From Haliclystus octoradiatus (Eukaryota; Cnidaria; Staurozoa; Stauromedusae; Haliclystidae): DNA of 64,000 nucleotides. Positions 5,301 through 22,805 of the stretch are shown in pieces. Every line of letters starts with the position of its first letter. Position 1 is the first letter of the stretch. The position numbers and the translations under genes are program-made. The notes under the pieces were generated by a model. The model saw nothing but the letters and a program-made list of their open reading frames with translations. It searched no databases and was not told the DNA's origin. Where the stretch lies: the NCBI GenBank assembly GCA_916610825.1, contig OU744451.1, positions 17,879,307 to 17,943,306 on the forward strand. Direction: 5' to 3'.

Positions 5301-6327
5301 AAACATATAAAAGATATATGATGGGAATATGGTATCAAACTACTTGTTGGTTCACTATACTTCTCAAATCAATATTTTCCTGTCCGCATCAAGCGGAGAT
5401 GAAACATCAAAGACCCAGGATTAAAGAGAGTAGACAATGTTTCCCTGCATATGCAGTTTCACAGATTTACCACTGTGTTCTCAGCATAGCTTTTCCAATA
5501 GCAGGAAACTATATGAAGCTGCGAGCAGGGGTGGCACCAGAGGGGGGCAGGGGGGCTACAGCCTTCCCGTCGGAGATGCTCAGACCCCCCGTCGGGGAAG
5601 ACTAAATTTTCTGTCCGGGAATATTTTTAACATTTTTCTTAAAAAACAATAGGAATTAGCTCCATTCCAGTATCAGAGGCTATTGCCAAATTGTTTCTAT
5701 GTAACGTTGAAATTTGGCATAGCCCCCCTGTCGGGGAAGCCAGCCCCCTCGTCGGGGAAATCCTGGTGCCACCCCTGGCTGCGAGAAGCTGAAATAGACA
5801 TAACTTGACTTACCCTGACAGAAAACGGTTATAGTCTGAATTGAGGAAATATATTGGTAATATTCATTAACTAAAATACTCACACTAATAAAATAATGGG
5901 AAGTTGTTTGATTGTCTGTAAGATTTGCAAATCTCAAGAGTTTCGTTTCGGTATCATATTTATCTTGTTTTAATATCCAACAGCTTGAATTATCATCACT
6001 CCAGTTCATACCTATACAACCATCTGTATTCAAACATTCTGATTTACATTGATCTGAATTCTCTAGCTCTATAATTTCAGATGTTGGTGTAATTAAAATT
6101 GCATCAGGTATTCTTTCAAATGCGATCCATTTCGTATCATTCGTTAGACAATATCTTTGGCTTTGACAATCTTTATAATATTCAAAAACAACTGAGGAAC
6201 AAATATATGTTAAGCTAGTTAACAATATGATAATTCTCAATCTATATGCTCCCATTTTTATGACGACGACCATGTATGGCGATGACTTGTGAATTCTATT
6301 TGCATAAAAGTTGAAATTTATATTCAC
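2332..6327 (-). CDS. Secreted PAN/apple-EGF protein (three exons)
   Basis: Three minus-strand exons join in phase. Exon 1 (6327-5884) has a signal peptide best read from the third Met at 6255 (MGAYRLRIIILLTSLTYICSS), then a PAN/apple domain with the Cys pattern DQC-SEC-DGC-SSC; it ends at a GTGAGT donor in phase 0. Exon 2 (3974-3842) encodes one EGF domain with six cysteines (NKC, QPC, GLC, YTC, DC, HC) and ends in phase 1 at GTAAAG. Exon 3 (2696-2332) begins after a tttcatttcag acceptor. It carries a Cys-rich stretch with C-x3-C spacing and N-glycosylation sites, and a stop at 2332. Length is 313 aa, or 289 from the Met at 6255. Such proteins act outside the cell in adhesion or binding; the ligand is unknown. 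There is no membrane anchor in this model. Open minus-strand pieces at 3308-3051 and 3050-2902 might be alternative exons. Confidence 0.7.
2702..3835. other. Intron 2 of the PAN-EGF gene
   Basis: No repeat with clear ends is visible. On the minus strand, 3308-3051 is open and has a possible donor at about 3235, and 3050-2902 is an open, hydrophilic stretch ending in TAA. They could be alternative exons of the surrounding gene or remnants of another, but their phases do not join cleanly to the EGF exon, so they are not called. Confidence 0.3.
4034..4917. mobile_element. Harbinger-like non-autonomous transposon (884 bp)
   Basis: Terminal inverted repeats of about 36 bp begin GGCTAGGGTTATATGGACGC at 4034 and match the reverse complement of 4882-4917. 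The element is flanked by TAA on both sides (4031-4033 and 4918-4920). A TWA target duplication is characteristic of PIF/Harbinger elements. No transposase is encoded; the open frames inside are incidental. A perfect internal palindrome lies at about 4165-4197. It sits in intron 1 of the PAN-EGF gene. Confidence 0.8.
4163..4198. repeat. Perfect palindrome inside the Harbinger-like element
   Basis: AGCTCCGCACGTCAAG is followed one base later by its exact reverse complement, giving a hairpin with 16-bp arms and a 1-nt loop. It is markedly more GC-rich than its surroundings. Confidence 0.85.
5526..5777. mobile_element. hAT-like MITE (252 bp) with 8-bp target duplication
   Basis: The ends are CAGGGGTGGCACCAG at 5526 and its reverse complement ending at 5777. 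The 8-bp sequence GCTGCGAG occurs exactly on both sides (5518-5525 and 5778-5785). An 8-bp target duplication and CAGGGGTG-type ends are typical of hAT elements. The body holds GC-rich CCCCGTCGGGGAAG blocks in both orientations, so the element can fold on itself. It has no coding capacity and lies in intron 1 of the PAN-EGF gene. Confidence 0.9.
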
Positions 6328-6339
6328 ATATATAGTTTA

Positions 6340-6775
6340 TATAAAATATAGGTTACATATTAATTCGTATACACTGCCTGCATACCACTCTCGAAGCACT
6401 TTATTGATGATTTGCCCCCAATAACGCTATAAAATTCATGTTGGTGTCCTTTAACTCGTCTTGGCGTAAACACAACCTGTTCTATTTTTAATTATTAAAT
6501 ATGCAATTCATGATCATACCAATTACCTCTCATTACAATTATTTTATTGGAATAATTACAAGTAAACAATCTTTACATGATTCTTGAACAACATCATGGC
6601 ACTTTGACTATAAAATGAATGTTGACAAATAAATGATCCTGGTATTCTAGTAGCCATTCACTCTTCTGTTCATAACATCAGTTCTGCTTCCAATTGGCAT
6701 ATTTACATGTACCAGGTGATATGTTATCATCACATACAAGACTAATTATAGATCTCATAATCATAGCACATGGTG
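6340..6775. other. Upstream region of the PAN-EGF gene
   Basis: AT-rich sequence with no recognisable gene or repeat. It should contain the promoter of the minus-strand PAN-EGF gene, but no core-promoter element stands out. Confidence 0.3.
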
Positions 6776-6856
6776 TCAGCTAGCTAGGTGGATTTTGCTA
6801 TATATTTGGGGTAATTTTTTCTTGATCTGAAGCATGTTTATAGTCAATCTGACCAA

Positions 6857-7170
6857 ATGGGATTTTACTTGTGTAGATTCACATGCAACATCATATTTCA
6901 GCAACAATCGCATCCAGTGAAGCAGCCAACATTGCAGAAGCAAACAAATGAAAAAACATATGAGTGCCTCTTGCAAGGATATACATTTCAAACAATAGCA
7001 GCCGAGACTACTGAACCTTTTTGGGAAAAGGGCAAACACTTTATCAATTGAGTTGGAAAACAGAAAGAGAAACAGTGAAGGACCTTCCTGTGGCAGAGAA
7101 TATCCGTGGCAATCGAGAGGGATGCTATCAACGTATTAAGAACCCTTTGAATAGGAGACTATATAATGTA
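6857..7170 (+). pseudogene. C-terminal fragment of the retroelement seen at 1-1970
   Basis: Plus-strand translation gives TYECLLQGYTFQTIAAETTE followed by segments resembling FLWQRISVAIERDAINVL, broken by stops after KGKHFIN and KQKEKQ. The same order (K-Y-x2-L, F-x-P/T-A-x-E, then a QRIS-type block) is found at the C-terminal end of the minus-strand relic at the left edge of the window. It is therefore a 5'-truncated, decayed second copy of that family. Confidence 0.5.
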
Positions 7171-8125: not shown

Positions 8126-8134
8126 GTGTTCTAC
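8126..8134. repeat. Left target-site duplication of the MULE
   Basis: GTGTTCTAC lies immediately outside the left terminal inverted repeat and matches GTGTTCTAG at 22797-22805 in 8 of 9 positions. Mutator-like elements usually make 9-bp duplications. Confidence 0.85.
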
Positions 8135-8180
8135 GGAGGATTCTATAACATAGCCAAGTCGTGCGAGCGCTGACGTCACA
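8135..8180 (+). repeat. Left terminal inverted repeat of the MULE
   Basis: It begins GGAGGATTCTATAACATAG and ends GCTGACGTCACA. Against the reverse complement of 22751-22796 it has four mismatches, at positions 3, 4, 17 and 40 of 46. It contains a CRE-like TGACGTCA; the other arm has TGATGTCA, which might serve as a promoter or transposase-binding site. Confidence 0.9.
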
Positions 8181-8736
8181 TCTGAAGAAGACTGATGACT
8201 ATGACACATGACTTTCTGTTCGATTTGAAATTAAATGATTTGCATTTGAAATTTTATTTTGTAAAGCAAGGAAGATATCAAAGTGGTTCAAAATCGAAGC
8301 TGTAGGGAATTCAGCTTTGATTATTTGGCATCTAGCTAAATATCATTTGGTATCAAATTCTGTTAATTCGTACAATCGATAATGCTTGTAAGTAATATTG
8401 GAGTATTAATACAGAAGGCATGTTACGCATTTTACTTTACTATATGTTACGGAAACGAATTATTAATTCTTGGCAATTAAACTTTGAAAACAAGATGTCT
8501 ATTTAGTTTCAAGGTAAGGTTGGTTAAAGGTTATGTTATTTACAATAGTAGGTTATAAGCGTTATATCTTCTATGACGATTATTGATTTTTTAAACAACT
8601 GAATAGTCAATTTAAAAAATTATTTATTTATAATTGATGACTAATATGTTGAACTGTAGCCAAGGCCTAGGCTAGGCTATTTTATCCACCGTAATAAATC
8701 ATTAAAATTTCGTAACGTAGGAGCCTATAAAGTTAA

Positions 8737-9468
8737 TTACAGAAATTCATTTGGCAGTTCTGCACATAATTCACACATCCAGCCAAAGCCAATGGCTCTA
8801 GCTGAATCAGTCACCTTTTCTTTTACTGAAATTTGTCAATTTCTGTCAAAATGTTGTTTACAAACACAGCATTCTGTTGTCAGATAAACTTTCGTTGCTG
8901 GCAATCTGCATGAACAGAAGACCTTGATTGCAAGAAGTGTATTAAAACGATTGCCTGGAAGCCTTTCATTGTATGGGAATGTTTCCATTTTGTTTGCTTC
9001 CAGGCATGTCTTCAAATGGAGACGCAGGAGATGGTGATTGAAGTTGCTATACTTCACACTCTGCTTAAAGCATTCTGCAGTTGCAAATGCAATTGCAAAT
9101 AAGCCACAGCTGCTTTTATCATGTTGCTGTTGGATGTCAGGTATAGCAACTAAAATAGACGAATTGCGACAGTTGATCAGACGAGCAATAGTGTGCTTGA
9201 GATTTTCATCTAAAGCGCTGGGTCTCAAGCTATCCAACAGGATGACATTATTGGAATTTAGTGTTCCAGCTGCACTGATTGTAGCCCAGTGGTTCCCATT
9301 TATGTTGATCACTTGTACAAAAGGCGAAGTGGAAGAACGCATGTACTTGGTACCCTGGAGCAACGTATCCTGGAAGCCTGCCAAATCAGGGATTTGTTTG
9401 CGGAGCAATTTTTGTGCAGCATTAATGAGTTTGTCGTTGAGCCACCCATCAGCTGACATCAGCAACTG
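8737..9468 (-). pseudogene. Ulp1/C48 cysteine-protease domain and zinc motif, last exon of the MULE gene
   Basis: The frame starting at 9465 holds the order of a Ulp1 (SUMO protease, clan CE) domain. GWLNDKLINAAQ is at the start, the catalytic His is in GNHWATIS (residue 59), the Asp in LLDSL (78), and QQQ precedes the Cys in SSCGLF (residue 120), where the family usually has DCG. After the domain come paired cysteines (CSCR, CCVCKQH), a TGA at 8836, and in the same frame WMCELC before TAA at 8737. Together these make a PHD-like zinc motif cut by the TGA. In plants such domains are captured by some MULEs; here it is fused to the transposase, whose frame runs into it through small acidic exons. 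Confidence 0.85.
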
Positions 9469-11380
9469 TTAATGATAAACAGATAATAGCATCCAAATCG
9501 TAATGTTTTTAGAAAGTTTAACAAAATACACACAATGATTTCCACCTAAAATCTCTTAGGATACCTACAAATTGAATTTAAGCAGCTCATGTGCATAATT
9601 ACCTCTTTGTCTTTCCTGGACAAACTTATCCCTTCTACATTTATCCACTCCAAATCATTCAGGTCTTCAGGGTCAGTTGATTCATCATCAGATGAAATCA
9701 CTTCGACGTTGTCATTTTGGATTTGCTGAATAAAAGTTTAATTATCATGGATTTAAGTTAAAAAATTTAAGTTTTAAGGATTTAAGTTAAAAAATCATGG
9801 ATTTTCAGTTTGACAACAGTTTCCATAATAAAGTCAAAATGTCAAATTCTATTTGCATTAAACTTACTTCTGAAATATCTTTTTCGCACAGCATCTCAGC
9901 TTCAATACTCAATGACTGAGATGCTAGATAATATAAATTTGATAATGCAGCAATATTATTAGGAATATATTTAGGCCTACGGTGACTGATGATAATTCCA
10001 TATAATCACATTAAACATTCGTTTATTATCAATTTGTTATGTATAATGTTTGCCTTAAAAATGATTGGTCCACAGATCTAGGCCTACTCATGCTTTCTAA
10101 GTGACCCACCTTCATATGCACGTAGCTTCTTTGTAATTATCTTTTTCTTCACCGGTCCAGCAGAATCTTGGCTTGTCAATATTTGCAAATCATCTGAAAT
10201 TCCCAAAGCAGTGAAGTTTTCTTTGTTTTCAGCTTCTGCTCCTGAAATAATATTGTTAAAGTCGATTGATTATTGCGAATAATCGGTTTTATAATTTTAT
10301 TTTTCCCTTTTAGTTTAATTTAGCGGAATCAATTACCAAAACGTTTCTGCTTCTTTTTCTTCCATATCTTGAGATAAATGACAATTTTATCTGAAAATCT
10401 TTTTTTCTGTTGATTTGATGATTTTGCATTTTTATTTACAGTACTTTTTTGCTTTTTGGTTGGAGAATCACATTTGTCTTTCACTGGTACATTATTCTGT
10501 TCAGATCGATGTTTCCTGGCATAATCAAATGTATTTGCGATTAGTTTATATAATTCCTGGGAAGATTCATTGTCTCTTGGAAGGTATATTTCATCAATCA
10601 ATGACTTGCAAATACGTATGCAATCGTATTTTGTTTTCAAATTGTCTCTGGTTGAAACTCCTACGAAGATAAATGCAACATTTTTACAACATCAGGTTAA
10701 TCTACTTTGTTTTATGGATGTTACTTTATTCTTTAAGGAATTTCTATTATTGACAACTATAGTAATTATGCCAAGAGACAGTATTCAAATGAATTACAAT
10801 GCATGGGCAATATTTAATACAGAGATGTTAGAGGAAGTGACACAAAGATTACCACATTTAATAATAATTACAATACTTACTACAACTATAAATATAATTT
10901 CTATAGTAATCTCTATGTCAAAAAAGGATTTGAACTAGTAAAAATAATCTAGCATGATGTGTTGTTTTAGCCAGAGTTATATGGCTTCGCTACACAATGT
11001 TATGTTGGACTCAACACAAATCAGTAAGGCAAATACAATTATCACACAACTTTTAGTGTCCAATCTATGTCCTGGAAATCGAAATGCTAGATAAAAATGT
11101 TATATTTAAAATAATTACTCGCGTTATCAGTGCATCATATACAGACTGGACTATATACAGTGTCCGACAAAAGATTTTGCCTTCTGGAATCTTAAAACGT
11201 TTTCTTAATTTTCTTCTGAATTTTTTGTTATGGTTTGGCCTATAAACCAGGGAATTATAAATTTTCTTCTGAATTTTCTCAGGTCTTCCGGGATCTAGGA
11301 TCCCAGGATCCCCACTCCTGTCGGACCCTGACTATATATTATCAGAGAAGAATATTAAGCAATGTATGATAATGTTTTAC

Positions 11381-11892
11381 CTATGTGTGTTTGTGCTAGC
11401 TCCATTTCAGCTTCTACACAAGGCTGCACATCAATATCCTGTCTGTTATTTTCAGTATGTATCATATTATCACTTTCTCTATGTGAGTTGATATAGGCAC
11501 CTGATTGAGGCACAGTATCACACATATACGAGGTTGCCTCATTCACAACTTCTTCATTAAGAGTAAATAAGGGGTGGTATTTGAATTTTTCACCAACACT
11601 TTCCCATCCATTTGATTGCAGCTTGACCACAGCACATATATGTTTACATGGCAGCCTTGAAGATACAAAGTCCACACATTGGCATGATGGGAGAGTTGTA
11701 CTGGATCCCAATTTGACCATATAATGGCATTCGGTATATTGGCTTTTTGCTATAAAGTCATTACAACCACAGTCTTCGATATAAGATGCAGGGTAATCTA
11801 CATCCAGCCTGAGACTGATATGATTGGCAAGGATTGGATTGATTACGTATCTACTGTAAGAGGATGAACACTGGAGATTCATTTTTCGATAC
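11381..11892 (-). pseudogene. SWIM zinc-finger exon of the MULE transposase
   Basis: This exon runs from a cattacag acceptor to a GTAAAAC donor. It encodes CQCVDFVSSRLPCKHICAVV, the C-x-C-x(n)-C-x-H signature of SWIM fingers that follows the catalytic domain in MULE transposases and in ZSWIM proteins. The exon itself is open, so it is intact even though the gene is broken elsewhere. Confidence 0.9.
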
Positions 11893-14281
11893 CTGTAATG
11901 AAAATATAAAAGACACATTGAATACTGCAACATCTTCAAATATGTAGGTTGTATAAAAGAAGATTCTCAAGGTATGTGTGTCAATAAACATGTCTCACTT
12001 GTGATAGCTGTCAGGTAAAAAGTTTTCTACAATCACTTTAGCAAGCTCTGCAATTGTGCTATTGCGGCGTCCTTTCAAGAAGCTGGACTTCAACCATCCA
12101 TTCTGTCTTTCTATACCGTTGTTAATGTAAACACCAATGTCAAGATTCTTCTCTCTATGAAACATCCCCCATTTCTATAAAAAAGTAGGCCTATTTATAT
12201 TTTGTCACATAATTTAACATAATATCCCATGATTTCCTATTCATTTATATATGATAATCTAGGCCTACTGTTTCCACAGTCTGTTTACACCGAGATAAGT
12301 ATAGGCCTAAATTGACTCAACCAATAGGCCAGTCAATTTTTATTATAGGCTATCCCAAATATTGTTTGCTACCTATTTGTGAACTATAAAACAAAAATAG
12401 AAATTTATGATGAATATAAACCTCTGTATGCTTCTCCCAGTATTCTGTGTAGTAATGCTGGAACTTTTCGCAGAGTGTCCACTCAAGGCTGCTTTTCAAT
12501 TTTGATGTGTGACTATTGAACGTAGCTTCATCTGGGCTATTCGCTATGTCACGCATAAATTTGAGTAATTCATCTTTAAAGAAGTAAGAACCATGATCAT
12601 GCTTTGACAGTCATTCTCCCCACGCTTTCTCTCGGTGAAAGTCACACAAGTGTATGTGTGAATCTGTATGGTGCAATGAAATTGTTTTTGTTAATCTAAG
12701 TTCTATTATCTTAGTAAATTATATTAATGAGCTTTATTTTGATTGATAATATAGTCAAATCTAAGTACTGTAAAACAGCAGTAGTCTACTTGCTCAAGTT
12801 AACCTACACAGCAGCCATATGTACAATTGTACATATACCATATGTAGTTCACTAATTATCTATGTTTTCATATTCAATTCGCAAGTTCATTGGTCATGAT
12901 TAGCCTTTATATCTATTGCATCTAATAGTCCAAACTATGGTTGCTACTGTACAACAATACCCCTGTAAAAAAGTCAATGAGTCCATGATTCATGAACATT
13001 TTCAGTGGGTTCATGAAAATTTGGAAATTTCATGTTCATGGGCTGTATGAACTTTTTCACAATGGTAACTTACCAGGATGTGAATGATTTATGGTATTAA
13101 TTTCCGCAAGCGAATAATCCACAATAAAGTTTTTAGGATTCCAATCAGGATTCTTTTCCTTTATGATATCCAATGCCTCCTTTAACGATTCTTGGTCTTC
13201 ATTCTCAGAAATCAAAGCAGCTCACAGCAAAATCCTTAAAATCGCTTACAAGAATCTTTTTATAAGTATCAAGAATATATTTCCTTGAAACTGTTGTTTC
13301 AAGACGAAATTTTCTTTTTTTTTCACACGCTATTCAATTGAATTTAGCTGTTAATTGCCGCTATTTTCTTGTTTCAAGAATAATTGTCTACATAGAATCA
13401 GAGATTCTCGCACCTTCCAACAATAATATTCTCCTTTCAATTGGCTTTTTTCTTAATTGGAGTATATTTCTGTTCAACCTAATACGGTATTATAGCCCTT
13501 TCCTGGCAGAAATAGAATCATAATCCAAACAACAAACGATATATAACTTGATTAAAATCATGATTTTAATTAAAATATTATAGTTCATTTATCAAATAGC
13601 AAACATTTTATTCAACAATCAACATGAATAATTCCAAAAGTGTTCACATATTTTGTTACTAGACTCAATTAACAAGAACTAATGTAACTTCAAAACATAT
13701 CACTTAATACATCATTTTAGTAGTTAAATGTAATAAAAACGTTTTATGCCTATTTAACAAAGCTCAAGATTATTTAGACTATATACGATGATTATAATAG
13801 TAATTTGTTATTTATGAGATTACCATCTAACTTCAATGTAGTTCATTATTGACAGTACAAAGTTCTTGAGTATGGTTTTACCAATAAAAACACGCATTGG
13901 CATTGCCAAGAACGATAGATGGATGGTATAGTATATTCCCAAAATGAAAAGTTAAACCAAGTAACAGATATGTGTTCCTGGTGAAAAAGCAAACAAAAAA
14001 GAGTTGAGTAAGTGAAACATATATCCTCAGTTAAAACTGGAGAAAGGACACAATAATAGAGTAGCAATGTCAATAATATAAAGATGATAACAGCTCATTA
14101 ATATATGATGAAATTTACTTAAAATTAAATTGATGGTAATTATTCAGTGATACACAACTATATTACGTTACTTCAACTCCAAGAATCCACTTTCTAGTTA
14201 ACTGACGTGCAAATTGTAAATAGTAGCAATAATAATAATGGTAATACATACATAGTTACATACATACATAGTTACATACAT

Positions 14282-14362
14282 AGTTTTTCCAAGATGGCTA
14301 CTTGACCACATGTTGTATTTACTGCTTCATCTTTCTCTGAGTATTTTCTACTTATTATAACA
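14282..14362 (+). repeat. 5' LTR, truncated at its start
   Basis: This 81-bp sequence is identical to 18546-18626. The first 63 bp expected from the 3' LTR are absent; in their place are acatacatagtt microsatellite repeats at about 14245-14281. The retained part ends in TTATTATAACA. Confidence 0.9.
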
Positions 14363-14380
14363 TGGTGTCAGATGTAAAAG
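14363..14380 (+). promoter_or_regulatory. Primer-binding-site-like sequence
   Basis: TGGTGTCAGATG directly abuts the end of the 5' LTR. A TGG start is what is expected where the CCA end of a tRNA primes reverse transcription. Which tRNA pairs here was not determined. Confidence 0.55.
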
Positions 14381-14426
14381 ATTGAACATTAATTGAATAT
14401 TACTTGAACATTAATTGAACAATACT

Positions 14427-17054
14427 ATGGCTGAATCTAGTGAATTTTCTAAGCCTGGACCGCTTGTATTTGATGCAAACGCTGCTGAGAACTGGCGCCG
14501 TTTTTTGATGAGATTTCAAATTTACCTTGTTGCAAAAGAAAAGGATGATAAACCTGATCGCCTCAAGGTGAATATGTTACTGAATTTCGCTGGCCCTGAT
14601 GCTATAGAAGAATATAGCCATTTTACTTATGGTCCAAGAGAAGATATGGAGAATTATGATTGTATAATAAGCAAGTTTGATTTACTATGCCGTGGTGCAA
14701 AGAACGTCATTTATGAAAGATTTGTGTTTTTTACTAGACAACAAAAGGACGGTGAAAGGATTGACTCCTTTATCAGTGAACTGAAAAGGTTAGCATTGTC
14801 TTGTGAATTTGCTGGTCTACGTGACTCTTTAATTCGAGATCGCATTGTTGGGGGAGTAATCTCTGATGACTTAAGAGGAGAATTGCTAAAGAAGCCAGGC
14901 CTAAACTTGAAAACTGCCCATGATTATGCAAGGACATTCGAGGCAACTGAAAGTCAGAAGCAGCAGTTTTCATTATCTGCCCGTGCATCACAACCAGAAC
15001 AGACTGCAATTCATTTTGTGAAGGATAGTAAAAGAAGCAGCAAGAAGTCAACCTGTAAATTTTGTGGTTATAGTCATGCCATGAAAATATCATTATGTCC
15101 TGCCCACAATAAAAAATGCAGAAGATGTGATGAAATTGGGCACTTTGAAAAAATGTGCACAACACAAAAAGATAACAGCAAGAAGATTCGGACTGTCCAG
15201 AGAGATGAAACTGACAGTGAAGAAGATGTTGAAAGCCAATTATATTTTGGATCTCTTGAAGTTGGTGCTATATCTTCAAAGATGCATAAGAAAAGCATGG
15301 TGACTGTGAAAATAGCTGGAAAGGATGTACAACTGAAGGCTGACACAGGTGCAGAAGCAACTGTTATTCCGTTGTCACTATACAGGCACTTGTCCAAGAA
15401 GCCATTAAAGAAAGTGCGTCTACCATTAAAAGGCTGGTTAGCAGACAAGTCTGTATATCCTAAAGGGTGTGTTCGTCTACACACACAGTACAATAATCGG
15501 AGTTTAGACATTTTGTTTTTGGTTGTTGATGAAGAGTTTACACCACTTCTTGGCTGTGATGCGTGTTTGGATCTTGAAGTGGTGAAATTTATGAATGTTG
15601 ATTGCATATCGGACATGAGCCCCAAAGTACCCACTTGCAATGTATGTCCAGTGGATACATCACCTGTGCTGAAAGAGTTTAAAGATTGTTTCTCAGAACA
15701 ACCAGGACTGCTTGCAGATTCGGTTAGTTTGGAAATTGATGAGTCCTGTAGTCCAATAGTCCATGCACCTAGGAAGATACCAATTGCATTACAAGAGCCT
15801 GTCCACAAAAAACTGAAGGAGATGGAAGACATGGGTGTGATTATAAAGCAGACATCTAGTACACCATGGGTGTCTTCAATGGTTGTTGTAGACAAAAGGA
15901 AATCAGCAAAACAATCAACAAGACCTTGTGCCAAAGATATTCGGATATGTATAGATCCTAGAGACTTAAACAAGGCCCTGAAACGCTCACATTATCCGAT
16001 GGCTTCAATTGAGGACATTGCTGCTCGTATCCATGATTCCAAGGTGTTTGCTGTTTTAGATGCTTGCAGTGGCTATTGGCAGTTACCAGTGGATTTACCA
16101 AGCTCTAGGTTACTAACATTCAACACTAAATGGGGAAGATATAGATTTACACGACTACCATTTGGAATATCACCTGCTCCAGAGTTGTATCAACGTGAGA
16201 TGGATCGTCTGTTTGAAGGATTGCCAGTTGACATTATTGTTGATGATTTTTTGGTATGTGGCAAAGATCAGAAAGATTTGGATCAGAAACTGCGTCTAGT
16301 GTTACAGAGAGCACGTGAAGTTGGGTTGCGATTTAATCTAAAGAAATTAAAATACAATTTACCTGAGGTAACTTATGTTGGCCATGTATTAACATCGGAT
16401 GGTCTGAAACCTGATCCTGAAAAGATCCAAGCCATCCAAGAGATGCCAACACCAACAGATAAAGAAGGAATTCTACGGTTTCTGGGTACTGTCAATTACC
16501 TGGATAAATTCTTACCAAACAAAGCTGATTTACAAGGACCTATTTCTCAGCTCTCACAGAAGAATGTCAATTTTGTGTGGGACACACCTCAGCAAGAGGC
16601 ATTTGATGCCTTGAAGAAGTCATTAACCAATGCTCCTGTCCTTGCTTATTTTGACAACAACAAGAAAACAGTACTGAGCGTTGATGCTAGTGGGACTGGA
16701 CTTGGTGCAGTTATACTTCAGGATGGAAGACCAATAGCCTATGGGTCAAAACGACTAACTGAGTGTGAACGAAGATACACAAACATAGAGAGAGAGCTGC
16801 TGGCAATTGTATGGGGTGTAGCAAAGTTCCATACGTATGTCTATGGAAGGCAGATAACGGTTGAGACTGATCACAAACCGCTAGAAGCTATATTTCGAAA
16901 GAATCTTAACGATGCACCACCAAGACTCCAAAGAATGCTGTTAAAGTTGACCAAATATGCCCTAGATGTGAAATATGTACCAGGACGAGAGCAAGTACTG
17001 CCTGATTGCTTAAGCAGAGCTGCTATCGCAACCACTGGAAATATTCCAGAATAG
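14427..17054 (+). CDS. gag-pol: Gag-protease-RT-RNase H polyprotein of the gypsy element
   Basis: The first ATG in frame is at 14427, giving about 875 aa. Domains in order: a gag-like region; a Cys-rich part ending in the zinc knuckle CRRCDEIGHFEKMC (C-x2-C-x4-H-x4-C); an aspartic protease with DTGAEA; a reverse transcriptase with LDACSGYWQ, FTRLPFG and a VDD box in IIVDDFLV; and an RNase H with VLSVDASG, the ERELLAIVWG helix and TDHKPLE. The whole frame is open. It ends at an in-frame TAG (17052-17054) directly before the integrase, which continues in the same frame. Either this is a single nonsense change in a young copy, or pol is made by stop-codon read-through. Confidence 0.95.
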   Translation: MAESSEFSKPGPLVFDANAAENWRRFLMRFQIYLVAKEKDDKPDRLKVNMLLNFAGPDAIEEYSHFTYGPREDMENYDCIISKFDLLCRGAKNVIYERFVFFTRQQKDGERIDSFISELKRLALSCEFAGLRDSLIRDRIVGGVISDDLRGELLKKPGLNLKTAHDYARTFEATESQKQQFSLSARASQPEQTAIHFVKDSKRSSKKSTCKFCGYSHAMKISLCPAHNKKCRRCDEIGHFEKMCTTQKDNSKKIRTVQRDETDSEEDVESQLYFGSLEVGAISSKMHKKSMVTVKIAGKDVQLKADTGAEATVIPLSLYRHLSKKPLKKVRLPLKGWLADKSVYPKGCVRLHTQYNNRSLDILFLVVDEEFTPLLGCDACLDLEVVKFMNVDCISDMSPKVPTCNVCPVDTSPVLKEFKDCFSEQPGLLADSVSLEIDESCSPIVHAPRKIPIALQEPVHKKLKEMEDMGVIIKQTSSTPWVSSMVVVDKRKSAKQSTRPCAKDIRICIDPRDLNKALKRSHYPMASIEDIAARIHDSKVFAVLDACSGYWQLPVDLPSSRLLTFNTKWGRYRFTRLPFGISPAPELYQREMDRLFEGLPVDIIVDDFLVCGKDQKDLDQKLRLVLQRAREVGLRFNLKKLKYNLPEVTYVGHVLTSDGLKPDPEKIQAIQEMPTPTDKEGILRFLGTVNYLDKFLPNKADLQGPISQLSQKNVNFVWDTPQQEAFDALKKSLTNAPVLAYFDNNKKTVLSVDASGTGLGAVILQDGRPIAYGSKRLTECERRYTNIERELLAIVWGVAKFHTYVYGRQITVETDHKPLEAIFRKNLNDAPPRLQRMLLKLTKYALDVKYVPGREQVLPDCLSRAAIATTGNIPE

Positions 17055-17075
17055 GATTCAGACCTTCACATAAGT

Positions 17076-18443
17076 ATGATTAACAATGTCGCCATTCAAG
17101 ATAAGTCAATCGAAACCTTCCGACGTGCCATTTCAACTGATGAGGTATCAATTGTTGTAATGGATTACATTGTAAATGGTTGGCCTGAACAGAAAGATTC
17201 TGTAGATGAATTAGCAAAAGAATACTGGAACTTGAGATATGAACTCAGCGTGGAAGATGGTATCATCTTTAAAATGGATCGCCTTGTTGTACCACGATCA
17301 CTACGAAAGGAGGTGTTAGAGGACATTCATGCTGGCCACATGGGGGAAAATAAAAGCTTGTCTCTTGCAAGAGAATACGTATTTTGGCCTGGTATGTCAG
17401 CCCAAATTAAAGATACTGTGTCGTCATGTGGAATTTGTAATTCATTCCGAAACAGACAACAAAAAGAAACGTTGCAGCCACATGACATTCCAGATTTACC
17501 ATGGCAATCAATTGGATGTGACCTTTTTGACTTTGGTGGGCAAACGTATTTACTACTCACAGATTTTTTCTCAAAATACTTTGAAATTGAACAATTAAAG
17601 AGTGCAACTGCTTTGTGTGTGATCACAAACATTAAGAAGATATTTGCAAGATTTGGCATACCAGATACTGTCTACAGTGATAATGGACCACAGTTCAGCA
17701 ACACTCAGTATTTATTTAGCACATCACATGAGTTCAAAAAATTTGCAATTGATTGGAATTTTAAACATGTCACCAGTAGCCCAGAATATCCAAAATCAAA
17801 TGGAGCAGCAGAGCGTGCAGTGCAAACATCAAAAAGATTACTCCGAAAGGCACAAGCATCTGGCAGAGACCCGTTTGAGGCATTATTGAAGTTACGTAAC
17901 ACACCATTTGAAGATATTGGCCTTTCTCCAGTTCAGTTGTTAATGGGACGCAGGACAAAGACATCACTTCCAACTCATCGAAGGTTACTTGTGCCGCAGA
18001 ATGTATCTCCTGCTCGTGTTGTTGAACAGCTGAAAAAGCGACAAGTCACTGCAAAACGCTACTATGATACATCCAGTAAAGACCTACCAGTTTTGAGTGA
18101 TGGAGAAAAAGTCAGATTTAGACCAAACAAAGAAAAGTCTTGGAGAAAAGCGGAAGTACTTCCAAGATCTTATGTGGTGCAAGATGAACAAGGTCGAGTC
18201 TATCGACGCAATAGACAACACTTGATTGCTGTACCAAATGATCGAATGATGATAAATCACCAGCCTGTCAATCACGAAGCAGATGATGTGTCTCAAAGTC
18301 AAGACCCTGGTCAAAGCAATGTGCACAATAGTCAAGAGTCTGATCAAAACAATGATGCAACTGGACTACCAATCCAAAGCCTGAAACCCAAGAAATCAAT
18401 GAGAGAACGTCGAGCAACAGACAGACTTATTCAGTCGTGCTAA
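17076..18443 (+). CDS. int: Integrase of the gypsy element
   Basis: It lies in the same frame as the upstream polyprotein, separated by one TAG, so it is the C-terminal part of pol; the ATG at 17076 need not be a real start. It has an H-H-C-C zinc domain (HAGHMG ... CGIC), then a DDE core: Asp in GCDLFDFGG, Asp in YSDNGPQF and Glu in NGAAERAV. A basic C-terminal tail includes a chromatin-binding-like segment (KVRFRPNKEKSWRKAEV). The frame is open to the stop at 18443, just before the purine tract and 3' LTR. Confidence 0.95.
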   Translation: MINNVAIQDKSIETFRRAISTDEVSIVVMDYIVNGWPEQKDSVDELAKEYWNLRYELSVEDGIIFKMDRLVVPRSLRKEVLEDIHAGHMGENKSLSLAREYVFWPGMSAQIKDTVSSCGICNSFRNRQQKETLQPHDIPDLPWQSIGCDLFDFGGQTYLLLTDFFSKYFEIEQLKSATALCVITNIKKIFARFGIPDTVYSDNGPQFSNTQYLFSTSHEFKKFAIDWNFKHVTSSPEYPKSNGAAERAVQTSKRLLRKAQASGRDPFEALLKLRNTPFEDIGLSPVQLLMGRRTKTSLPTHRRLLVPQNVSPARVVEQLKKRQVTAKRYYDTSSKDLPVLSDGEKVRFRPNKEKSWRKAEVLPRSYVVQDEQGRVYRRNRQHLIAVPNDRMMINHQPVNHEADDVSQSQDPGQSNVHNSQESDQNNDATGLPIQSLKPKKSMRERRATDRLIQSC

Positions 18444-18482
18444 CTAATTATTATTAAAGTTATATTGTTATGACGAGGAGGA

Positions 18483-18626
18483 TGTTATAATATTTTATGT
18501 TAATCTTATTATTGTTATTGTTGTTTGATAACGAGGCAGTCTTTGAGTTTTTCCAAGATGGCTACTTGACCACATGTTGTATTTACTGCTTCATCTTTCT
18601 CTGAGTATTTTCTACTTATTATAACA
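18483..18626 (+). repeat. 3' LTR of the gypsy element
   Basis: This 144-bp LTR starts TGTTATAAT after the purine-rich GACGAGGAGGA and ends ATTATAACA. It is unusually short for a gypsy LTR. It is followed by GTAATAATAATGGG, the start of the tandem-repeat unit into which the element inserted. Confidence 0.9.
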
Positions 18627-18636
18627 GTAATAATAA

Positions 18637-19880
18637 TGGGATCGTTCCACATCAGTTCTTGGTACGTGGTCAATGAAATAATCAAAGCATTTATAGAATG
18701 AGAATCAAAAATGATACTTGTTAGATTATGTTACGTTACTTCAAGAATCGTCCTTCTAGTTAACTTGGGTGAAACTTGAAGCACCATAATCTAGCAAATC
18801 TTATTTTTGTCTCTAATTTACTATAAAAACTGAAGTCAAGTTTATAAAATATAACATCCTATGTGACTGTCATTGTGATCTCTCAATTATTGATATTATG
18901 AAGTCTAATAAAAATTATAATAATAGTAATAATAATAATAAAATTTATGTTTGTCTAATAGCAGATAATATAGGGCTCTATGTCTTCATTTGACAGAGCG
19001 GTAAATAATAATAATTTATGGCGAAAGAGTCAAAGAATACACATTCTTTACTGTTACTCAAGTTTCACGCTTTTCACAGCGATCTTCAGACAGATTTTTT
19101 ACTCAATAATAGTAATAATAATAATAATAATAATAATGGTAATAATGGTAATATAACAATAATGGGATCGTTTTACGTCAGTTCTTGGTACGTGGTCAAT
19201 GAAATAATCAAAGCATTTATAGAATGAGAATCAAAAATGATACTTGTTAGATTACGTTACGTTACTTCAAGAATCGTCCTTCTAGTTAACTTAGGTGAAA
19301 CTTGAAGCACCATAATCTAGCAAATCATATTTTTGCCTCCAATTTACTATAAAAACTAAAGTCAAGTTAATAAAATATAACATCCTATGTGGTTGTCGTT
19401 GGAATCTCTCAATTATTGATAATATGAAGTCTGATATAAATTATAATAATAGGAGTAAAATAATAATAGTAATATAATAATAATGGTATCATTCTATGTC
19501 AGTCCTTCGTACGTGGTCAAGAAAATAATCAAAGCATTTATAGAATGAGAATCAAAAATGATACATGCTAGATTATGTTACGTTACTTCAAGAATCGTCC
19601 TTCTAGTTAACTTAGATGCAATCTGAAGCACCATGATCTAGCATATCTTATTTTTGTCTCTAATTTTACTGTAAAATCTAAAGTGAAGTTAATAAAATAT
19701 AAAATCCTATGTGATGGTCGTTGGAATCTCTCAAATATTGATATTATGAAGTCTAATAAAAATTCTAATAATAATAATAGTGCCGTGGTATTATGATAAT
19801 AATGGGATCGTTCCACATCAGTTCTTGGTACGTGGTCAATGAAATAATCAAAGCATTTTGAGAATGAGAGTCAAAAGACA
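18637..19880. repeat. Four-unit tandem repeat (about 320 bp) with ATA microsatellites
   Basis: Units begin near 18637, 19163, 19484 and 19801 with ATGGGATCGTTCCAC-like sequence. They share TACGTGGTCAATGAAATAAT, AATCGTCCTTCTAGTTAACT and TATGAAGTCTAATA. The first unit contains about 200 bp of extra sequence. Trinucleotide TAA/AAT runs join the units. A diverged partial copy at about 14150-14250 shows that the gypsy element landed inside this array. The array lies in a transposase intron. Confidence 0.85.
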
Positions 19881-19899
19881 CATGCTAGATAATATTACT

Positions 19900-20800
19900 T
19901 CAAGAATCACCCTTGAAGTTTGATGCTGGCTTGGGATGAGAACCCTGAGAATGCAATTTGGCCTCCTGACTTTAGGCGTTCTAAATTAGTTTGGCAGACA
20001 AAAGTCAACGTTGAATTATTAAACGCATAGAATAACAAAGTATAATAGACCTACCTTTCTTACACTTGAATCTCAAAAGTCAAATCCCACAAAATAATGT
20101 TCGAGGAAAGACAACATTCAGGCTAGGTTTAAATGAACTTCCTTGTTGGCCAATGGCGGTGTCATTCCATCGCGTTTTCATAAACCAAATAGGCCTAACC
20201 AATTCCATGTTTTCACCTTTTATAATTCCTCGCGTAAATATCATATCATTCGAAGCATCTTTACAAGTTAAAGTTAAAGCCATGGCAGGTTGAAAACATC
20301 TTGATGTTCTCTGAGTTTGTAAAGTCGTAAACTGCAAATGCAAACGGTCACAGTTTTCTGTTTTCTTTCAAATCTTCATACCGCGCCTTTGAATGAGGAC
20401 CTGGGTCTCAGTTTGAAAGGACGCAATTGGATGAAACAATAGGTCTGCACGCAGGCTAATAATTTTGGAACTTTGACACATTTTACAGAACAGTTATTTA
20501 GCAGTGTGAAAACATAGAAGCATTGAATTCTTATTTCAAGAATATTGGCCCTATCCTACTTGAAACTAGTGACGCCTCAAATCATATAGCTTTATATTCT
20601 TATTTGGAGAAAAAAATCTGTCAATACAAGAATTTTAGGATATACTTGTTTTCAATTTTTGCTGTGTACTACCAAATAACACATGTTGGATTTGACGCAT
20701 AAAAAGAACAGTGGAACTGAGTATCTATAATTCAGTTATGACAATAAAGTTTATCAGTATTCAGTATGACTCAATTTTCTTAGATTTTACAAGGATATAT
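19900..20800. other. Intron sequence inside the MULE gene
   Basis: No clear exon was found between the tandem repeat and the first catalytic exon at 20816. A TCTGCACGCAGGCTAA motif near 20443 resembles the ends of the palindromes at 40505 and 42201. Confidence 0.3.
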
Positions 20801-22750
20801 CATTTTTACACTCACCTACAACATCTATATGTGGCATCTAACAAACAAAGATCTTGTCCATATCGGACCAACAACCTCCGCATCCACTGTGAGTGGTATA
20901 TGAATAATAGCTTTACAGTGTTAGATTTTGCCTAGAGGCATCAAAGAAAAGTGTACAATGTTACCATGTTGGAAATCATTTGAAAATATTATGATGTACA
21001 TACAATTTACACAAATACCTTATTACTTTGGTAAATGCCTCATGGTCATTTTTGAATGCCAAAATATACATTACATTCGCTGTAAACGTTTTAGTGCTAG
21101 TTTTGAGGATGCATCTGTTTATACTAATTGCTTAAGATTATTTAAGATTATTTTAATTTAATTGTTCATTTAATTTACGCTGTCAAATCTGGCTAGGTTT
21201 GTTTCTCAGGAGTGAATAACTTACCCTGAATTTTACAAAACCATCCTTTTCCTTTGCCCATTCACTGCACATAATTTCCAGATTTTTCAGATCATCTGGC
21301 GAATGCCTCCTTCCTAGCCTCTCGTTATTCAAAATGTTGTAAAGATCTTTTTTGTGTGGAAAATATTTCCGGCGCGTGTTCGGTGGTGGCTCACGATCTC
21401 TAAACAAGTCTTTTGTGACGTAGCATTGATATGCTTTTCTGCCTCTGTGACAATGTTGACACCTATGCTGAACAGATCTCGTACTTTTTGTACTATTTTG
21501 GGGTCTATTGGCTCTCGCATGTGGGATGCCTGCAAGAAAACATCTTGGTAATTATTCATCAGTCATTTTTCAGTATTGATAAACACAGACCAAATGCTCT
21601 AGAACATACCTCTCCTTCTGTTGATTGGTATCTGTGGCTGTTTATAGCAGGTAATTTCAACTGAAAACATTCTTCAGCTTCAAGTGCAATACTGTTCTTA
21701 ATGTCATCTTTCAGCTTCTTCATCATTTTCCGTTTTAGTGCATTGTTTTGTTGTTCTGTGGGCTGTAATTCAACCTAGAAAAGTTGAATGTAATGATACA
21801 GTAGTCTCGAAATATTCGATACATAGGCCAAACATGAGTAAATAAATCTCAAGTGTACAAACACCCTGTATCAGTGGCCAGTGTTGAAATTAAGGCGTCT
21901 ACTAATTTATAAAATCATTGGGTCTTTATTTTATTGTACTATCCCTAAATAATGTATTTCAATGGTCTTACCTGATACTTCGGAAAGATCAATATCCTTG
22001 ACATAAAAATTTTGCTTCGACAACCAAGCTTCTTACTAAATTGCAAAAGGAACCTTTTTCTTAGAAAGGAATGCTCTCCTGGGCCAAGCTAAAATTAAGT
22101 TGAAAAATGATCACTGCAATCATTCAAATATAAAATACATGCACTGAATAAATCCATATACAACAAAACATTTCAGAATCTTATTGTTTTCATTTTCCCG
22201 TTGTCGTTTTTCCTTGGCGTTTGCATCAATATCCTCTCCCTGTTGGTATTGATAATAACAATTGCCTGCACATATGAATGGTATGCCATCGAAAGGGTTT
22301 GAAATTCCATCATTGCATTTTGAAGTGGACGACCAAAGGATTCTGGAAGACTTTAGGAGAGAAGGCAAAGCTTCTTCGAATTTTTTTACTAAAAAACAAA
22401 AATGGTCATGTTTTAATATCACTTCAGCATGGGTCACCTTGATTGTAAACATGAACATTCATGTCCGACTCACCGTATATTTGGTCTTTATGATATAGCC
22501 GCCAACTAGAATATGTATCATCCTTAAACTTTTCGAAAAATATATCTAATTCTGTTTGATTGGTGAATTTATGTATAGTATAGTGACATTCATTGATAGC
22601 CTCCTCGCTATCCATACTGTACTTCGTTCGATGGCTGTGCCGTTCTACGATCATGTGGGTGGGTGGTGGCATCACATTTCATGTTTCCCGCGTATTTATG
22701 TTTTGCTACATGCCTCTCTTTAAATTAACGAATATCTCACTTCCAAACAT

Positions 22751-22796
22751 TGTGACATCAGCGCTCGCACGACTTGGCTGTGTTATAGAATCGACC
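22751..22796 (-). repeat. Right terminal inverted repeat of the MULE
   Basis: This is the reverse-complement partner of 8135-8180, 42 of 46 bases identical. The first transposase ATG candidate (22675) is only 76 bp inside it, so the repeat probably also carries the transposase promoter, as in other MULEs. Confidence 0.9.
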
Positions 22797-22805
22797 GTGT
22801 TCTAG
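22797..22805. repeat. Right target-site duplication of the MULE
   Basis: GTGTTCTAG directly follows the right inverted repeat and is the partner of GTGTTCTAC at 8126-8134. Confidence 0.85.

What the first reader, a model, noticed from the sequence alone, without database searches (positions are those of the whole stretch)
8126..22805. Animal MULE whose transposase is fused to a SUMO-protease-type domain
One minus-strand gene, bounded by 46-bp inverted repeats and a 9-bp target duplication, links a CaRF-like DNA-binding region, a full DDE core, a SWIM finger, a Ulp1/C48 domain with recognisable His-Asp-Cys residues, and a PHD-like zinc motif. Ulp1 capture is known from plant MULEs. A fused animal version with exons this finely split is unusual. 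The protease might remove SUMO or ubiquitin-like tags from host silencing factors or from the transposase itself; that is speculation.
Basis: partly seen in the sequence, partly recalled or inferred. Interest (0 to 1): 0.85.

Follow-up and report, generated by a model that had tools for sequence, protein, structure and literature searches.

The report
Jumping gene with built-in SUMO-type protease
This is a dead copy of a Mutator-type jumping gene whose enzyme carries a protease domain of the kind that removes SUMO tags; the combination is real and recurs in several animal groups, but this kind of element was already on record.

Summary
Window 8126-22805 holds a Mutator-like element (MULE): 46-bp terminal inverted repeats, a 9-bp target duplication (8 of 9 here; 9 of 9 in six sister copies and a second family), and one minus-strand gene in the order CARF/ALS2CR8 region, DDE core, SWIM finger, Ulp1/C48 protease (His-Asp-Gln-Cys intact), PHD-like motif. 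The fusion is real. The exon order recurs in five families of this genome; lancelet, Hydra and frog proteins carry these parts in one chain; 27 of 40 DDE matches have a same-strand Ulp1 match within 12 kb downstream. This copy is dead: a 7.4-kb nested insert with a Gypsy-like pol splits the DDE core, with a frameshift and stops besides.

It is not new in kind. Bao and colleagues (2010, PMC2836005) already name Ulp1 domains in Mutator elements of hydra and lancelet and align the Ulp1+PHD of Ginger1 and Mutator transposases. Purifying selection and a largely conserved triad suggest an active protease. The predicted fold is closest to SENP5, but a ubiquitin protease is tied and a NEDD8 protease close, so the substrate is open. 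In passing, ISL2EU-type transposons here carry a YqaJ+Ulp1 second protein. Three transposase superfamilies thus share this module, perhaps as a counter-SUMO device.

The parts
8126..8134 (.). Target site duplication, one copy (GTGTTCTAC; 8 of 9 with the other)
8135..8180 (+). Terminal inverted repeat (3' side of the gene)
   Evidence: 38 genome matches of the end
8749..8916 (-). PHD-like zinc motif, 3' part of the last exon; interrupted by a stop in this copy
8974..9468 (-). Ulp1/C48 protease domain; His 9289-9291, Asp 9232-9234, Gln 9124-9126, Cys 9106-9108
   Evidence: Pfam PF02902, alignment A2, fold
9597..9722 (-). Exon block just before the Ulp1 exon (acidic linker)
10335..10394 (-). Short basic linker exon block (weak match in the window, E 0.66)
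10515..10661 (-). Linker exon block between SWIM and Ulp1
11535..11891 (-). SWIM zinc-finger exon (about 9 residues shorter than in L029)
   Evidence: Pfam PF04434 just below cut-off
11998..12171 (-). Exon with the catalytic Glu (NGIERQN; Glu near 12109-12111)
12422..12667 (-). Exon with the CDFHRE region; one stop in this copy
13081..13206 (-). Exon 7, 3' piece, with the second catalytic Asp (FIVDYSLAEIN)
13232..20666 (.). Nested insertion (about 7.4 kb) that splits exon 7; holds a plus-strand Gypsy-like pol, ORFs 14415-17054 (Pfam-scanned) and 17055-18443 (not scanned)
20667..20726 (-). Exon 7, 5' piece (RYSVPLFFLCVKSNMCYLVV)
20815..20925 (-). Exon 6 with the first catalytic Asp (LLDATYR; Asp near 20836-20838)
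21225..21529 (-). Exon 5, C-terminal part of the CARF/ALS2CR8 region; frameshifted in this copy
   Evidence: Pfam PF15299 2.6e-4, below cut-off
21610..21750 (-). Exon 4, CARF/ALS2CR8 region
21972..22076 (-). Exon 3, CARF/ALS2CR8 region
22189..22440 (-). Exon 2, CARF/ALS2CR8 region (approximate ends)
   Evidence: Pfam PF15299 5.3e-7
22475..22615 (-). Exon 1, N-terminal block (start at MDSEEA)
22751..22796 (-). Terminal inverted repeat (5' side of the gene)
22797..22805 (.). Target site duplication, other copy (GTGTTCTAG)

Best explanation
A decayed copy of a metazoan-type Mutator-superfamily (MULE) DNA transposon that encodes one large transposase: an N-terminal CARF/ALS2CR8 region (likely binds the terminal repeats), an RNase-H-fold DDE core that cuts and pastes, a SWIM finger, and a C-terminal Ulp1/C48 cysteine protease followed by a PHD-like finger. 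Shown: the architecture, repeats and target duplications, colinearity in several families, triad conservation in nearly every sequence compared, and purifying selection. Inferred: the protease is active and strips SUMO (less likely NEDD8 or ubiquitin) from proteins at the element's own chromatin. Targets may be SUMO-dependent silencing factors or the transposase itself, so that transposition or expression goes on. My estimate for SUMO-directed activity that helps the element is about 0.45, for anti-silencing specifically about 0.25. This copy does nothing now.
Confidence: 0.75

Rival explanations
1. The Ulp1-PHD exons are a separate gene or a captured host fragment (Pack-MULE-like) that merely lies inside the repeats.
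For: No RNA data here; about 2 kb separate the SWIM and Ulp1 open frames in L042; plant Ulp1 genes in MULEs may be separate genes (recalled: Kaonashi; Hoen 2006 is only cited in PMC2836005).
Against: Same order and strand in five divergent families; the parts stand in one annotated protein in lancelet, Hydra and frogs; purifying selection on the protease.
Confidence: 0.08
2. The protease serves as a self-processing enzyme (as adenain-type viral relatives do), releasing the DDE-SWIM part from the C-terminus.
For: The fold family includes viral processing proteases; adenovirus and ASFV proteases are among the fold matches.
Against: No conserved Gly-Gly in the up to 90 residues before the domain: 4 of 16 MULE linkers and 2 of 81 ISL2EU-type linkers have one; nearest structures are SENPs.
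Confidence: 0.12
3. The domain acts on NEDD8 or ubiquitin rather than SUMO, for example to stabilise the transposase or to act on DNA repair factors at the break (the repair idea is that of Bao et al. 2010).
For: OtDUB is within 1 Z unit of SENP5 (a tie) and Den1/NEDP1 within 1.7; Bao et al. discuss repair factors.
Against: SENP or Ulp1 chains take the first eight VIA rows and Foldseek rows 1-18; Z differences under 1 are ties, so this is weak.
Confidence: 0.25
4. A domesticated host gene rather than a transposon.
For: CARF and ZSWIM domains also occur in host genes (Pfam names; recalled).
Against: Multi-copy, repeat-bounded, with target duplications and decayed copies.
Confidence: 0.02

Closest known systems
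MuDr-type transposons with Ulp1 domains of Hydra magnipapillata and Branchiostoma floridae (Repbase Reports, cited in PMC2836005; passages and reference list of that paper read, the reports themselves not seen)
   Same: Animal Mutator transposase with a Ulp1 domain; a figure legend of PMC2836005 names an alignment of the Ulp1 and PHD of Ginger1 and Mutator transposases
   Different: Other species; the CARF/ALS2CR8 N-terminus and fine exon splitting are not mentioned in the passages read
Ginger1 transposons (Bao et al. 2010, PMC2836005, passages read)
   Same: C-terminal Ulp1, in one listed family with PHD, fused to a DDE transposase; P0024 (rve, H2C2, weak C48) and, by eye, P0023 are relatives of that kind
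   Different: Gypsy-integrase-type core, not MULE; the word SWIM does not occur in the paper
Plant MULEs with Ulp1 domains (Hoen 2006, van Leeuwen 2007; cited in PMC2836005, not read)
   Same: MULE plus Ulp1-type protease
   Different: Plant lineages; not compared here by sequence
Muta1 of Aedes aegypti (PMC5225508, passages read)
   Same: Animal MULE, DDE, 8-9 bp target duplications
   Different: The word Ulp1 does not occur in the text

Membership tests
Mutator-like element (MULE) superfamily | 8-10 bp target site duplication | tested here: met
   9 bp: 6 of 7 two-ended copies perfect, window 8 of 9; L033 9 of 9; read by eye
Mutator-like element (MULE) superfamily | Terminal inverted repeats | tested here: met
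   46 bp, 92% over the 48-nt arms; shorter than the over 100 bp that PMC5225508 calls typical
Mutator-like element (MULE) superfamily | MULE-type DDE transposase core | tested here: met
   Window piece alone: ZSWIM1-3 RNaseH 1.3e-4 and MULE 0.056, both below cut-off; full relatives reach MULE 5.4e-12. Core interrupted in this copy
Mutator-like element (MULE) superfamily | SWIM zinc finger (recalled as common in MULEs) | tested here: met
   Window 0.5 bit below cut-off; relatives above it
Ulp1/C48 (SENP) protease family | His-Asp-Cys triad with Gln, in a Ulp1 fold | tested here: met
   Pfam PF02902 above cut-off. Asn for Asp in P0005
Ulp1/C48 (SENP) protease family | deSUMOylating activity | not testable with these tools
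   needs biochemistry
Ginger1 superfamily | Gypsy-type integrase core (rve, H2C2 zinc motif, GPY/F) | tested here: not met
   No rve or H2C2 match in the nine element pieces scanned, unlike P0024; GPY/F not looked for
PHD finger | Cys4-His-Cys3 zinc motif recognised as PHD | tested here: inconclusive
   No Pfam PHD match in the truncated window exon; relatives P0001, P0002, P0004, P0005, P0007 match PF00628 above cut-off; motif columns conserved

The most novel reading that the evidence does not exclude
The Ulp1(+PHD) module is a general counter-SUMO device of animal DNA transposons, recruited or exchanged among at least three unrelated DDE superfamilies (MULE, Ginger1, ISL2EU), and serves to undo SUMO-dependent silencing at the element itself.
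Probability: 0.2. Interest if true: 0.72.

Novelty: new member of a known kind. Interest (0 to 1): 0.36.

Why it matters
The locus itself adds another lineage to a known class. The repeated link of a SUMO-protease-type domain with unrelated transposases in animals makes one question directly testable: do DNA transposons fight SUMO-based silencing or use the SUMO system for repair? The material at hand is multi-copy families with near-identical, stop-free protease exons.

Tried and rejected
SUMO-interacting motifs before the protease: seemed striking by eye, but a fixed pattern found 2 of 16 MULE linkers (shuffled mean 2.7) and 5 of 81 ISL2EU-type linkers (shuffled mean 2.9, most 7); not supported. 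Self-processing at Gly-Gly: not supported. Exchange of the protease between MULE families: the DDE tree groups L041 with L029/L033 (100/100) while the Ulp1 tree puts it with L040 (89/92). Holding the DDE grouping on the Ulp1 data is not rejected (AU p 0.069; 0.13 without the Hydra row), so no swap is claimed. Ulp1 of MULEs as one group apart from Ginger1-like and ISL2EU-type: not rejected (AU p 0.0998). PDB by sequence: only weak matches (SENP5 E 0.036). Ten literature searches with MULE/Ulp1/SWIM, ALS2CR8, Zisupton, ZSWIM, sponge, YqaJ/ISL2EU, SUMO protease, WRKY-GCM1 and Branchiostoma terms gave one direct precedent for animals, PMC2836005; the library lacks most subscription journals. The host was not identified by name. 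Exon 8 was given to the tree script in the wrong frame and so fell out of the tree; exon 2 was given in the wrong frame.

Full report
WHAT IS THERE. The interval is a transposon. Inverted repeats 8135-8180 and 22751-22796 are 92% complementary over 48-nt arms, and just outside them lie GTGTTCTAC and GTGTTCTAG, 8 of 9 identical. These form 14 closed repeat pairs within 20 kb, with 10 matches left unpaired. Six other two-ended copies examined all have a perfect 9-bp duplication, read by eye from the flanks, which fixes the ends and the duplication length.

THE GENE. On the minus strand the exons encode, in order: a CARF/ALS2CR8 region, the DDE core (LLDATYR, FIVDYSLAEIN, NGIERQN), a SWIM finger, a linker, a Ulp1/C48 domain and a PHD-like motif. 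In the 7.1-kb sister copy L029 14 coding blocks were recognised. L029 itself has a stop in the CARF part.

THIS COPY IS DEAD. Between 13231 and 20667 it has about 7.4 kb that L029 and the C2 copy (L030+L031) lack. The insert carries a plus-strand Gypsy-like pol (RT_RNaseH_2 3.2e-32, RVT_1 2.1e-18) and splits exon 7 between the first and second catalytic Asp. A frameshift in exon 5, a stop in exon 8 and a stop in the PHD part are further damage.

IS THE FUSION REAL? Three lines say yes. First, exon queries from L029 find colinear, same-strand matches in L033/L034/L048, L040, L041 and L042. In L042, whose 5' end was not fetched, no CARF exon of L029 matched; in L040 the CARF match is weak (E 0.004). 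L048 lacks part of the exon series. The L033 family is itself bounded by 30-bp perfect repeats and a 9-bp duplication. Second, 27 of 40 DDE matches have a same-strand Ulp1 match within 12 kb downstream; the window core counts twice because it is split. The controls give 1 same-strand upstream, 1 opposite-strand upstream and 0 opposite-strand downstream. Third, annotated proteins from Branchiostoma belcheri, Hydra vulgaris, Bufo bufo and Phyllobates terribilis, and a EukProt record, contain ALS2CR8, a MULE core, a Ulp1 region and a PHD finger in one chain, most with a SWIM match too; some of these matches are below Pfam's cut-offs. Pfam C48 reaches its cut-off only in the Hydra protein P0013, is sub-threshold (E 0.0009-0.0052) in P0002, P0004, P0005, P0006 and P0007, and is not listed in P0001 and P0022, where the region aligns with the window family's domain. 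Of the 21 proteins, 8 have an alignable Ulp1 part. The two fish proteins read, P0003 and P0008, end before it.

EVIDENCE AGAINST UNIVERSALITY. 13 of 40 DDE matches lack a Ulp1 match within 12 kb downstream. L049, from a group of six similar loci, has CARF, DDE and SWIM blocks and weak PHD-like pieces (E 0.2-0.5), but no Ulp1 domain was found in it; its SWIM block has a stop. Eleven of 14 repeat pairs of the window's own family have neither DDE nor Ulp1 matches. They are probably non-autonomous; the five compared keep about 160 bases related to window 8735-8900, where the PHD part ends.

HOW IT MAY WORK. The DDE part moves the element. A SUMO-type protease in the same protein would act where the transposase binds, and a PHD finger could hold it on chromatin. 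Removing SUMO from silencing factors, or from the transposase, is the likeliest benefit. This is inference. Conserved self-processing sites and SUMO-binding motifs were tested in the linker and not supported.

WHAT IS KNOWN. Bao and others 2010 (PMC2836005; passages and reference list read) state that Ulp1 is encoded in Mutator transposons of hydra and lancelet, show (by its legend; figures are not held) an alignment of the Ulp1 and PHD of Ginger1 and Mutator transposases, and suggest a role in repair. The finding is therefore a new member of a known kind. What is added here is the CARF N-terminus, the count over one genome, selection on the protease, a locus group without it, and the fold comparison. 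I found no paper on the CARF-MULE-Ulp1 combination in the ten searches listed under Tried and rejected.

A SIDE FINDING. In the same genome, the four fetched loci L036-L039 look like ISL2EU-type elements. In each, a THAP/DDE_4-type transposase frame (Pfam-tested in L036 only; cut by the locus end in L038) lies next to a convergent frame of 774-936 aa (L039's is split in two). Three of these frames were Pfam-scanned, and YqaJ and C48 were found in 3 of 3. A protein search with the L036 frame gave 267 relatives, of which 120 are listed, nearly all with YqaJ, among them proteins from corals, Nematostella and lancelet. 77 of those 120 have a located Ulp1 domain. In two ISL2EU papers the main text mentions YqaJ but not Ulp1, SWIM or a PHD domain (searched by word).

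Noticed in passing
L036:1727-4477 and 5467-6999; also L037, L038, L039: ISL2EU-type elements whose second ORF joins YqaJ exonuclease to a Ulp1/C48 domain, with SWIM-like and PHD-like cysteine motifs (those two by eye); many copies in the genome and relatives in corals and lancelet.
   Followed up: partly
window 13232-20666: Nested insert with a plus-strand Gypsy-like pol (ORFs 14415-18443) flanked by 81-bp identical direct repeats (14282-14362, 18546-18626), beside 4 copies of a 91-bp repeat at 18620-19876. Observed only.
   Followed up: partly
L049 (G000:C6:12221000-12230000): Member of a six-locus MULE group with CARF, DDE and SWIM blocks but no detectable Ulp1 domain; weak PHD-like pieces remain.
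   Followed up: partly
L042 and the C4 and C7 copies: A related MULE family with four Ulp1 exons at 100% amino-acid identity and without stops, which suggests recent movement.
   Followed up: no
P0003, P0008 (fish proteins): Fish CARF-MULE-SWIM proteins that end just before the Ulp1 part: loss, domestication or cut gene models.
   Followed up: no
window 21183-22458, 13057-13221: These exons match Pfam ALS2CR8 (human CARF, name recalled) and ZSWIM1-3 RNaseH-like, which hints that those vertebrate genes share ancestry with this MULE lineage; not tested.
   Followed up: no
P0005 (Phyllobates terribilis): A fused frog protein whose Ulp1 domain has Asn in place of the catalytic Asp, so some relatives may have a weakened or dead protease.
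   Followed up: no
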